From positions 3,175,341-3,239,340 of the forward strand of contig NC_015732.1 in the NCBI RefSeq assembly GCF_000219725.1: DNA of 64,000 nt. The letters are read 5' to 3'. Below are positions 22,634 to 26,284 of the stretch, piece after piece. This stretch comes from Gracilinema caldarium DSM 7334. GTDB taxonomy: Bacteria; Spirochaetota; Spirochaetia; Treponematales; Breznakiellaceae. Made by a program: the position numbers and the translations under genes. Each line of letters begins with the position of its first letter. The first letter of the stretch is position 1. The notes under the pieces are model-generated. The model did not search any database and was not told the DNA's origin. It saw only the letters and a list, made by a program, of their open reading frames with translations.

Positions 22634-23368
22634 ATGAATATATCCCTTGAACTCGTGCCCCGGGATACACAGGCCGTCACCGAGGGCCTTGCGGTAGTTT
22701 CCCGCTATCCCGATATCAGCCTCATCAATATCCCGGACTTGCTCCGTTTCCCCATCCGTTCATGGCAAGCCTGCACCCTTATTCCGCCGCAGTACCATAC
22801 CATACCCCATCTGCGGGCCATCGATTTTAATCTCGAAGAACCCTTTCCCCTGACCGCATATTTTAAAGAACACCATATTGATACGGTGCTGGTTGTTGCC
22901 GGCGACCCGCCCCAGGATATGAAACACCGGGTGTACCCTACCCACACCACGGATTTCATCAAAAAATTAAAACTAGAGATGCCACAGCTCACCATTTACG
23001 CCGCCTTTGACCCCTATCGCTCCAATATCCGCTATGAACTGGATTATCTCAATGCAAAGGAAGACAGCGGTGCCGACGGTTTCATGAGCCAGCCCTTTTT
23101 TGATGTACGGCTCCTGGAGATTTATGCCGAATACCTGGAGGGCCGCAGGGTCTTTTGGGGTGTATCACCGGTGCTGTCGGAAAAAAGCCGCAACTACTGG
23201 GAAGCCCGCAACAGAGCTATCTTTCCCCGTTCCTTCCGGCCGGACCTGCACTGGAACATCAGCTTTGGCCGGCAGGTCCTGCAGTTCTGCAAAACCCATC
23301 ACTTTGATCTCTACCTCATGCCCATCAAGGTCGATCTGGATACCTACCTGCAGGGCCTGTTCAGTTAA
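22634..23368 (+). CDS. Short methylenetetrahydrofolate reductase-like protein
   Basis: A 244-residue protein with the beta/alpha-barrel pattern of MetF but shorter than the usual 280-300. The N-terminal MNISLELVPRD takes the place of the SFEFFPP segment of MetF. The barrel shows VLVVAGDPPQD (cf. the LRGDPP loop), a region near THTTDFIKKL, and GADGFMSQPFFDVRLLEIY, the counterpart of the GADF.ITQ.FFD motif. If active, it would reduce methylenetetrahydrofolate to methyltetrahydrofolate, the methyl donor for MetH encoded nearby. It could instead be a related oxidoreductase. It follows the thioesterase gene by three bases, and its stop overlaps the 3' end of the radical-SAM gene by eight bases. 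Confidence 0.65.
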   Translation: MNISLELVPRDTQAVTEGLAVVSRYPDISLINIPDLLRFPIRSWQACTLIPPQYHTIPHLRAIDFNLEEPFPLTAYFKEHHIDTVLVVAGDPPQDMKHRVYPTHTTDFIKKLKLEMPQLTIYAAFDPYRSNIRYELDYLNAKEDSGADGFMSQPFFDVRLLEIYAEYLEGRRVFWGVSPVLSEKSRNYWEARNRAIFPRSFRPDLHWNISFGRQVLQFCKTHHFDLYLMPIKVDLDTYLQGLFS

Positions 23369-24789
23369 AAACTATCCAGTTCTCAAGGGCCTGCCGCAGG
23401 GCACTGCGGTCTATGCCCCAATTTTTACCAAAACGGCGCAATAAAAAGCGGGATAGTTCGATAAAGGCTTCAAAGGCATTACCCTGTTCCGGAATAAGCC
23501 GGGGAAGCAGGTCTTCAAAATGCCCCCGATTTACAATGAGCTCCCAGAAACGGGCAAAGTTCTTTACCTCATCCAGTTCCGATCGGGAAAAGCTCCCCGT
23601 TTCCAGCACTTCGTAGGGAGGCTGGTCCACATAGTGCATCCCAAAGGGCCCATCATGACGGGCAATGGGTGTGCCGGGGAGCTTTTTCAGAATCCCCAGC
23701 TGAATTTCACCGGGCCGAACCTGCCAGAGCTGGTTAAAACTCCTTGCAAAACTTTCCAGCGTTTCTCCCGGGAGACCTGCAATAAGGTCCGCATGAACAA
23801 TCGCCTGGGTCTTTTCTCTCAGGAACCGTAAAGCTTCCTGTTCCTTTTCAGGATTGCTGGGCCGCCCAATTGTTCGAGCCACCTCAGGAGTAAAGGTTTG
23901 AATACCCACCTCAAGCCGCAGGGTACCCGCTGGGAACTGCTCTAAAAGGGTCCTCAAACGGTCAGGAAACCGGGAGGGGACCATTTCAAAATGCACATAT
24001 CCCGGCGGTTTTATTCGTTCAAGGAAAAAACGAAGAATCTGCTCTGCCCGCTCATAGTCGAGGTTAAAGGTCCGGTCAAGGAATTTAAAAGACCGCCCCC
24101 CCCCGAGCAAGAAGTTCTTCCATATCAGATAAAAAGTCACCCAGGGGAAATTCCCGTACACGCCGGTCCAGAGAGCTCAGGCAAAATTCACAGCCAAAGG
24201 GACAGCCCCGAGAGGCTTCTACATAGATGAGTTTTCTCGAGATATCCTCATCGGTATAGAGGTGATAAGCTGTCTTTATGTCCGACAAAACTACAGGCTT
24301 TGCGATAATCCATTTCCCTTCTATGACACCATAGGGTTCGAGGGCATCGAGCGGCCTTCCAAGCAGGAGGTGCTCACAGAGCAGTCGAAACACCGCTTCT
24401 CCCTCTCCGCGGACAATCCAGTCAGCTTTGCGCACCAGCGGCGCATCTTCCGGCAGATAGGAAACTTCTGGACCGCCCAGGACCACCACCGGCTTCGTCC
24501 AGCCCGGTCCTCCCCGGGTCCTTGCCCCAGACCAGTAGGTTTCCAGCTCTTCGAGCAACGCAAGTGTCGCCTCATGGTTCCAGATAGAAACAGAGAGGGC
24601 AAGGACCCGGGGCGCCGCCTCAACAAGAGGGGCGACCTTTTCTTCCAAAGGCTGCCGCAGGGCAAATTCGAAGATCCGGCTCCGTTCAGCCAAGGGGCCC
24701 AAATTCGCCTGTAACAGGCGCAATGCGAGAGATGGATGTATCCACTTCGCATTGATGGTTGCAAGAACAATATCGGCCATACAAGACAT
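23361..24789 (-). pseudogene. B12-binding domain radical SAM protein (DUF4080-type), frameshifted at a 9-G run
   Basis: One gene in two overlapping frames. The 5' part (24789 or 24780 leftward) starts MADIVLATINAKWIHPSL, the N-terminus of a B12-binding domain, and reaches the radical-SAM cluster CPFGCEFC. At a run of nine G (24096-24104) it slips into AVF and a stop. With eight G the frame would join ARGG directly to RSFKFLDRTFNLDYERA and continue to the stop at 23361, giving a full protein of about 475 residues. The ATG at 24787-24789 overlaps the TGA of the upstream nucleotidase gene (TGATG), a coupled start. So the gene is off in this sequence, by sequencing error, mutation or phase variation; everything on both sides of the run is intact. 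Confidence 0.88.
24096..24104. repeat. Homopolymer run of nine C (nine G on the coding strand)
   Basis: It lies inside the radical-SAM gene exactly where the reading frame breaks. Loss of one base restores the frame. Poly-G runs are known sites of slipped-strand phase variation in treponemes. Confidence 0.95.
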
Positions 24790-25415
24790 CAGCGGGGAAA
24801 ACTGGAAGCCCCAAAGAGATTCAGCGTACCGGTACGCCATTCATCATAGGCTTCCATCACCAGCCGTTCCACATCCTGCCAGGTATCGGCCCGAGGACCC
24901 GGAAGTTGCAGATTGGTAGAATTGGAAAACACAATAGTGCGGCATCCCTGTTCCCGCAGGCGCTCCACATTGCTTGGGGAATCATCAATATAGACATGGG
25001 CTCCGACGGCTCCCTTATCCTTCATGAAGCAGAGATCCCAGTAGGGGATATCATGGGCGTCGAGCCACTCCACGGTCTGAGTAATGGAGGTTTTATGAAA
25101 ATATTTTAAAAAAAGCCGGTGGGTGATAATCCGAATCCGGATACCCCGAACTGAAAGCTTCCTGAGGGTCGCCGGGGCATCCTTTATGGGCTTCATCACC
25201 CGAAAGAGGTCCCGCTGGGTAACGGCAAAGCGGTGCAGCCGGTCATATCCCCCGTACTCATCAATACCCCATTCATGAAGCCCGAAGGAAACCTCTTTTT
25301 TAAGACTTTCAAGGGGCCGGTCGAGCCATTCGGCGGCTATTTCCCGCATGGCACCATAAAAATCTCCGACCACGCCGTCTAGGTCTACGCCAAGGATAAA
25401 ACTACTCTCATCCAT
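24789..25415 (-). CDS. 5'-nucleotidase (NT5C-type, HAD superfamily)
   Basis: A 208-residue HAD-superfamily phosphatase. Motif I is GVDLDGVVGDFYGAM, with the nucleophile and acid/base aspartates near residues 11-13. A threonine in IRIITHRLF and a lysine near FMKDKGAVGA follow, and the last motif is YIDDSPSNVERL near residue 143. The arrangement and length match the NT5C group (PF06941) of 5'(3')-deoxyribonucleotidases, which remove phosphate from nucleoside monophosphates; other small phosphate esters are possible. It sits between the ABC ATPase gene (17 bases upstream) and the radical-SAM gene (overlapping by one base), so the three form an operon. Confidence 0.82.
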   Translation of the reverse strand: MDESSFILGVDLDGVVGDFYGAMREIAAEWLDRPLESLKKEVSFGLHEWGIDEYGGYDRLHRFAVTQRDLFRVMKPIKDAPATLRKLSVRGIRIRIITHRLFLKYFHKTSITQTVEWLDAHDIPYWDLCFMKDKGAVGAHVYIDDSPSNVERLREQGCRTIVFSNSTNLQLPGPRADTWQDVERLVMEAYDEWRTGTLNLFGASSFPR

Positions 25416-25432
25416 TATTGATTTATCTCCAG

Positions 25433-26284
25433 TTAGTTAGTCCCCGGTTCACCCTGCTGTTGAGATGCACCTTGGCTCGTTTCTTCTTGCTTTTGCGATA
25501 CAAGCAGGTCATATTCTTCTTCAAGTTTTTTCCGATCCAGATATTCCTTTTGTTTCAGCATCGCTGCAGGAACCCCATAGGCTTCTTCTAGATGGGACGG
25601 AGTCAAGAGTTCCGCAGGACTTCCCATATCAATTGACCGGTCTTTTTTAAAGAGGAGCACCGTTTCGGCATACTTCTTGGTGAGATCCAGTTCATGGAGG
25701 GACACATAGATGGTCACCCCCGTAGCTTTCTGATAGGATCGGAAAAAGTCGAGGGCCGCTTCCTTTTGCCGATCTTCCATTGCAAACACAGGCTCATCCA
25801 TAAAAAGTGACCGGGATCCGTAAAGTGCAGAAAAGGCAAGAAGGGTCCGCTGCATTTCACCCTTGGAAAGCCGGGCCAGGGGCCGAGTAAGAAGCCCTGT
25901 CAACTCAAAGACCGAGAGTACCTCTTTGTAAAAGTCGTCCCCTTTCAGGGCATGAAAACCGCCAGCATAGATCTGCTCAAGGAGCTGTCCCAGAGGATCT
26001 TCGGTTTCGAATTCCATATTTTGATATATGAACGATGCATAGGCATTCCGTTCATCCTCGCTGACAAAAAGCCGGGTATCTCGCCCCAGTAAGCTTATGG
26101 TTCCTTCCTGAGGGAGCAGCCGCCCTGCTGCAAGAAGCATCAGGGTTGATTTACCAGCCCCATTAGGCCCTACGAGGCTCACAAAGCCCGAGGGTAAGGT
26201 TGCTGAAAAGCCGGAAAATATCGGTTCAGCCGATTCCGGGTACTGGAATCGCACCTGGTGAAACACAGAAAATCCATTACTCAT
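25433..26284 (-). CDS. ABC transporter ATP-binding protein
   Basis: A 283-residue single ABC domain. Walker A GPNGAGKST lies at about residues 38-46, the Q-loop is in FIYQNMEFE, the signature is LSKGEMQR, Walker B is SLFMDEPVFAM, and the switch histidine is in VSLHELDL. It resembles the FepC/BtuD type of iron or cobalamin ATPases, but no permease or binding protein is adjacent. The C-terminal 45 residues are a charged, glutamine-rich tail (DLLVSQKQEETSQGASQQQG) not needed for the fold. It begins the three-gene operon with the nucleotidase and the B12/radical-SAM gene, so cobalamin uptake is an attractive but unproven substrate. Confidence 0.85.
   Translation of the reverse strand: MSNGFSVFHQVRFQYPESAEPIFSGFSATLPSGFVSLVGPNGAGKSTLMLLAAGRLLPQEGTISLLGRDTRLFVSEDERNAYASFIYQNMEFETEDPLGQLLEQIYAGGFHALKGDDFYKEVLSVFELTGLLTRPLARLSKGEMQRTLLAFSALYGSRSLFMDEPVFAMEDRQKEAALDFFRSYQKATGVTIYVSLHELDLTKKYAETVLLFKKDRSIDMGSPAELLTPSHLEEAYGVPAAMLKQKEYLDRKKLEEEYDLLVSQKQEETSQGASQQQGEPGTN

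What the first reader, a model, noticed from the sequence alone, without database searches (positions are those of the whole stretch)
23361..24789. Possible phase-variable B12/radical-SAM gene switched off by a nine-G run
The two frames fit together perfectly except for one base at a nine-G homopolymer; eight G would give an intact protein. Poly-G runs control on/off switching in Treponema pallidum and other bacteria. The gene is otherwise intact and coupled to a nucleotidase and an ABC ATPase, which suits a switch rather than simple decay.
Basis: partly seen in the sequence, partly recalled or inferred. Interest (0 to 1): 0.65.

Follow-up and report, generated by a model that had tools for sequence, protein, structure and literature searches.

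The report
Enzyme gene split at nine-G run
In the sequenced strain of a hot-spring spirochaete, a conserved B12-dependent radical-SAM enzyme gene is cut in two by a one-base frame error at a run of nine Gs; relatives show an intact gene without such a run, so this looks like a strain-level slip or leftover sequencing error rather than an evolved on/off switch.

Summary
The window is the end of a complete 3,239,340-bp genome, the published size of Treponema (now Gracilinema) caldarium H1T. A nine-G run (C9 on +, 24096-24104) splits a gene for a B12-binding/radical-SAM/DUF4080 protein into two overlapping frames. Every relative in which both halves were found (about 100 loci) reads them in one frame.

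The 'switch' reading is weakly supported. The run is private to this strain: congeners have six G there, and no G run in 90 relative ORFs exceeds seven. The gene is a single-copy, predicted cytoplasmic enzyme. The half behind the run is as constrained as in congeners, so any change is recent. Genuine strain- or culture-level slippage and a residual 454/Illumina homopolymer error both fit; only reads or re-sequencing can decide. If nine G is real, the tract should slip back at some rate, but nothing shows selection for that.

The genome does hold a far better poly-G switch candidate elsewhere. A G13 tract lies between TTGACA and TATAAT upstream of a small secreted leader-peptide gene, divergent from a C39 peptidase. 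The same promoter, with G7 to G13, recurs at six loci in two genera. It is reported as noticed in passing.

The parts
24096..24104 (-). nine-G run (C9 on + strand) where the reading frame is lost
   Evidence: exact nine also (G000:C1:3199435-3199445)
24085..24780 (-). upstream piece of the gene: B12-binding domain and first part of radical-SAM core, ends in TAA just after the run
   Evidence: Pfam B12-binding PF02310 E 7.6e-8; 72-73% identical to congeners; alignment
24181..24204 (-). CPFGCEFC, the CxxxCxxC [4Fe-4S] motif of radical-SAM enzymes, in the upstream piece
   Evidence: conserved in congeners
23361..24095 (-). downstream piece of the gene: rest of radical-SAM barrel and DUF4080 domain
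   Evidence: Pfam Radical_SAM E 2.9e-9 and DUF4080 E 2.6e-8; 79-82% identical to congeners
24789..25415 (-). 5' nucleotidase (NT5C) gene, its stop overlapping the possible start of the split gene (TGATG)
   Evidence: Pfam NT5C E 9.2e-46; found beside the split gene's orthologue in 63 loci
25433..26284 (-). ABC transporter ATPase, first gene of the likely operon
   Evidence: Pfam ABC_tran E 1.6e-16; synteny only in close relatives
22634..23368 (+). MetF-like (methylenetetrahydrofolate reductase family) gene, convergent, overlapping the 3' end by 8 bases
   Evidence: Pfam MTHFR E 2.2e-7

Best explanation
This is the single H1T copy of a conserved B12-binding radical-SAM DUF4080 enzyme. In the sequenced DNA, or in its consensus, it carries a strain-specific one-base length change in a G run that lies over a conserved R-G-(A/G) stretch and is long only in this lineage. 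Shown: the frame break, the intact state of all relatives found, the absence of the run in them, and no decay of the downstream half. Inferred: the change came from slipped-strand mispairing in the strain or during culture (somewhat more likely) or is a homopolymer error that survived 454/Illumina finishing. Predicted effect if real: a product of about 230 residues with the B12 domain and cluster motif but without most of the barrel, presumably inactive. A nine-G tract would also be expected to slip back at some rate, but as an incidental property rather than an evolved switch.
For: Each relative locus where both halves could be placed has both in one frame. The three congeneric genomes have six G at the site and an uninterrupted frame of 475-481 codons. 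The longest G run in 90 relative ORFs is seven. H1T versus congener dN in the downstream half (0.158-0.163) equals that between congeners (0.163-0.171), with 3 unique residues in H1T against 2-4 in each congener, so no relaxation is visible. The genome was built from 454 plus Illumina GAii reads with a stated error rate under 1 in 100,000 and 80 pseudogenes (PMC3739177). A survey of prokaryotic frameshifts treats lone frameshifted genes confirmed by a homologue as probable sequencing errors (PMC3711429). Other long runs inside genes are called in frame (C9 in a ManC-like gene and a GH32-like gene, eight-base runs in mutS, recJ and a mur ligase), so the assembly is not systematically wrong at such runs.
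Against: No raw reads and no second strain of the species could be examined, so error, fixed mutation and mixed population are not separated. 283x Illumina polishing makes a plain error less likely. Runs of exactly nine are more frequent in this genome than its 7-to-8 decline predicts (12 against about 2), which leaves room for a real class of length-variable tracts, although most of these lie between genes.
Confidence: 0.8

Rival explanations
1. Evolved translational phase variation: slipped-strand mispairing at the G run turns the enzyme on and off in a fraction of cells.
For: Nine G is in the range that varies in T. pallidum (7-11 G, PMC7864442). Campylobacter fetus has core phase-variable radical-SAM genes with G9-G10 (PMC6321876). 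The gene is otherwise intact. The same genome has a convincing poly-G promoter elsewhere.
Against: The tract is not conserved even in the genus. The gene is single-copy and conserved in frame, with no sign of a variable or surface function.
Confidence: 0.1
2. Sub-case of the best explanation: residual sequencing or assembly error; the gene is intact in the organism.
For: 454 homopolymer errors are well known (general knowledge); the case is a lone frameshift with both halves matching one homologue (PMC3711429); no decay of the second half.
Against: Illumina polishing at 283x (PMC3739177); two other nine-base runs spanned by Pfam domains are called in frame.
Confidence: 0.38
3. Sub-case of the best explanation: a fixed or culture-arisen loss-of-function mutation, the first step of a pseudogene.
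For: 80 pseudogenes are annotated in the genome (PMC3739177); nine-G runs are expected to slip (general knowledge); the stop follows immediately.
Against: No second inactivating change and full constraint in the other half, so it must be very recent.
Confidence: 0.42
4. Recoding: transcriptional slippage or ribosomal frameshifting at the G run makes the full protein.
For: Long runs can be slippery for polymerase and ribosome (general knowledge).
Against: All relatives are in frame with no such run, so there is no conserved recoding site.
Confidence: 0.05

Closest known systems
B12-binding radical-SAM proteins with a DUF4080 domain (PF02310 + PF04055 + PF13311) of treponemes
   Same: domain order, CxxxCxxC motif, about 70-82% identity to congeners, neighbouring NT5C nucleotidase gene
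   Different: only the H1T copy is split at a nine-G run
Phase-variable radical-SAM genes of Campylobacter fetus (CFT03427_1545 and _1558, G9-G10; PMC6321876)
   Same: a radical-SAM gene carrying a G tract of nine
   Different: there the tract is part of a core set present in most isolates and varies in length; here it is seen in one genome and is absent from congeners; listed there as MoaA/NifB/PqqE/SkfB family, not the B12/DUF4080 type
Poly-G promoter switches of Treponema pallidum (tp0126, tprE/G/J, tprL; PMC7864442)
   Same: poly-G of similar length, in a related spirochaete
   Different: those lie in promoters and tune transcription; this run is inside a coding sequence

Membership tests
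B12-binding radical-SAM DUF4080 family | B12-binding, Radical_SAM and DUF4080 domains in that order | tested here: met
   across the two pieces
B12-binding radical-SAM DUF4080 family | CxxxCxxC cluster motif | tested here: met
   CPFGCEFC at 24181-24204
B12-binding radical-SAM DUF4080 family | single open reading frame | tested here: not met
   split at 24096-24104 in this genome; single in relatives. It is a split copy of a family member, not an intact member
Slipped-strand phase-variable gene (translational) | long mononucleotide tract inside the coding sequence whose length decides the frame | tested here: met
   G9, frame lost at the run
Slipped-strand phase-variable gene (translational) | tract kept, with varying length, in related strains or species | tested here: not met
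   congeners have six G; no G run over seven in 90 relative ORFs; same-species strains not available
Slipped-strand phase-variable gene (translational) | mixed tract lengths in one population | not testable with these tools
   no reads available

The most novel reading that the evidence does not exclude
The nine-G tract is a real, population-variable switch of a B12-dependent radical-SAM enzyme in a free-living thermophilic spirochaete, newly arisen in this lineage.
Probability: 0.1. Interest if true: 0.45.

Novelty: new member of a known kind. Interest (0 to 1): 0.2.

Why it matters
For this gene: it should be annotated as one conserved enzyme interrupted in the H1T record, and strain-level run length should be checked before calling it lost or phase-variable. 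More broadly, the follow-up separates an incidental coding G run from a conserved poly-G promoter in the same genome, which suggests that poly-G transcriptional switching of the kind known from T. pallidum also exists in free-living relatives.

Tried and rejected
Conserved recoding: rejected, because no relative has such a run or two frames. Pseudogene decay: no second lesion and no relaxed constraint. A systematic assembly fault at long G runs: not seen in the other runs inside genes. No paper in the library names DUF4080 with radical SAM, so the enzyme's substrate stays unknown; the closest solved structure by sequence to the upstream piece is a radical-SAM core protein (9ccb, E 1.9e-6). My first dN/dS run used a wrong frame for the upstream piece and was redone. 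YN00 estimates failed on most pairs, so only NG86 values are used, and dS is saturated.

Full report
Identity of the window. The window is the last 64,000 bases of a one-contig genome of 3,239,340 bases. That is exactly the published length of Spirochaeta/Treponema caldaria type strain H1 (DSM 7334, CP002868; PMC3739177), now Gracilinema caldarium. It is a free-living hot-spring spirochaete. Its genome was finished from 454 (26.8x) and Illumina GAii (283x) reads with Polisher correction, a stated error rate under 1 in 100,000, and 80 pseudogenes.

The observation. On the - strand a run of nine G lies at 24104-24096. The frame that starts at ATG 24780 (or at about 24791 within TGATG, overlapping the nucleotidase stop) ends in TAA directly after the run. 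The other frame continues to 23361. The first piece carries a B12-binding domain and CxxxCxxC; the second carries Radical_SAM from profile position 46 on and DUF4080. They are two parts of one gene.

Relatives. A search of 58 genomes of the genus, family and order and of the GTDB contig collection brought in about 100 loci. In each one where both halves could be placed they lie in one frame. The three congeneric genomes have six G at the site and open frames of 475-481 codons. Across 90 relative ORFs the longest G run anywhere is seven. The run is therefore private to H1T within the available sample. H1T has one copy. The NT5C gene was found next to the gene in 63 loci, not all of which hold enough flank; the ABC ATPase only in close relatives.

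Constraint. The two pieces were compared separately with congeners. In the downstream half, NG86 dN between H1T and congeners (0.158-0.163) equals that between congeners (0.163-0.171), and unique residues are 3 of 244 in H1T against 2-4 in each congener. The upstream half behaves alike. dS is saturated for most pairs, so this says only that there is no visible excess of amino-acid change. The frame change is recent, or is not in the organism.

Genome context of G runs. The genome has 83 G/C runs of exactly seven, 13 of eight, 12 of nine, two of ten, one of twelve and one of thirteen. The 7-to-8 decline predicts about two nines (crude Poisson P about 2e-6); an independent-base model predicts about six. 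So long runs are somewhat over-represented. Of the 16 runs of nine or more, 12 appear to lie between genes and four inside open frames. In two of the other three, a Pfam domain spans the run, so they are in frame (ManC-like NTP_transferase and a GH32-like protein). Eight-base runs in mutS, recJ and a mur ligase are also in frame. Selection keeps true lengths in frame, so these controls exclude a systematic assembly fault but not an occasional one.

Interpretation. What is shown: a conserved enzyme gene, split only in this record, at a run absent from relatives, with no decay. Three accounts remain: a slip in the strain or culture, a residual consensus error, and, less likely, an evolved switch. 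A published survey of frameshifted prokaryotic genes treats lone cases confirmed by a homologue as probable sequencing errors (PMC3711429). Against that stand the deep Illumina reads. For a switch, precedents exist: the tprL poly-G tract of T. pallidum, in a promoter, varies from 7 to 11 G in vivo (PMC7864442), and Campylobacter fetus has core phase-variable radical-SAM genes with G9-G10 (PMC6321876). But the hallmark of such loci, a tract kept with varying length among relatives, was tested here and is not met.

A contrast found on the way. The G13 tract at G000:C1:296444-296456 lies between TTGACA and TATAAT (spacer 20 nt) in front of a 118-residue protein that looks like a Sec signal peptide followed by a GG-type leader. 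It is divergent from a C39 peptidase (PF03412; nearest NCBIfam models FapD and FilB, below their cut-offs) and an adjacent protein of about 286 residues without a Pfam match. The same promoter, CTTGACAATAACAC-Gn-TATAATCAAG with small variations, occurs at six loci in two genera with n = 13, 8, 9, 7, 13, 13 and spacers of 20, 15, none visible, 23, 21 and 20 nt. A pattern scan of 195 family genomes found exactly these six places and none with the reversed control. The leader is conserved and the cores differ widely; in one copy (L173) the frame stops after 45 residues. This is what a conserved poly-G promoter switch looks like, like T. pallidum tp0126 and meningococcal porA as described in PMC7864442. 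Length variation within a population was not tested.

Verdict. Observation confirmed; switch interpretation not established and improbable (about 0.1). Interest is low for the gene itself.

Noticed in passing
L121 2532-2563 (G000:C1:296431-296462); also L151, L150, L152, L173, L174: Conserved promoter with a poly-G tract (G7-G13) between -35 and -10, upstream of small secreted leader-peptide genes with highly variable cores, divergent from a C39 peptidase; six loci in two genera, none elsewhere in 195 family genomes. A strong candidate for transcriptional phase variation in free-living treponemes; the peptides' role (bacteriocin-like or fibril-like) is unknown.
   Followed up: partly
L132 2517-2524 (G000:C1:1529216-1529223): mutS contains an in-frame eight-G run (Q-G-V-V-G-G-E); congener G002 encodes the same residues without the run. 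A slip there would be expected to inactivate mismatch repair.
   Followed up: partly
L135 2460-2468 (G000:C1:1858759-1858767): G9 run three bases before an ATG, in the place of a Shine-Dalgarno sequence; length changes could alter translation.
   Followed up: no
L122, L130 and L140 around the runs: Some G/C runs between genes appear to lie in short, similar, GC-rich intergenic elements with inverted repeats, judged by eye.
   Followed up: no
L126 2537-2548 (G000:C1:1000336-1000347): G12 run upstream of a helix-turn-helix regulator gene.
   Followed up: no
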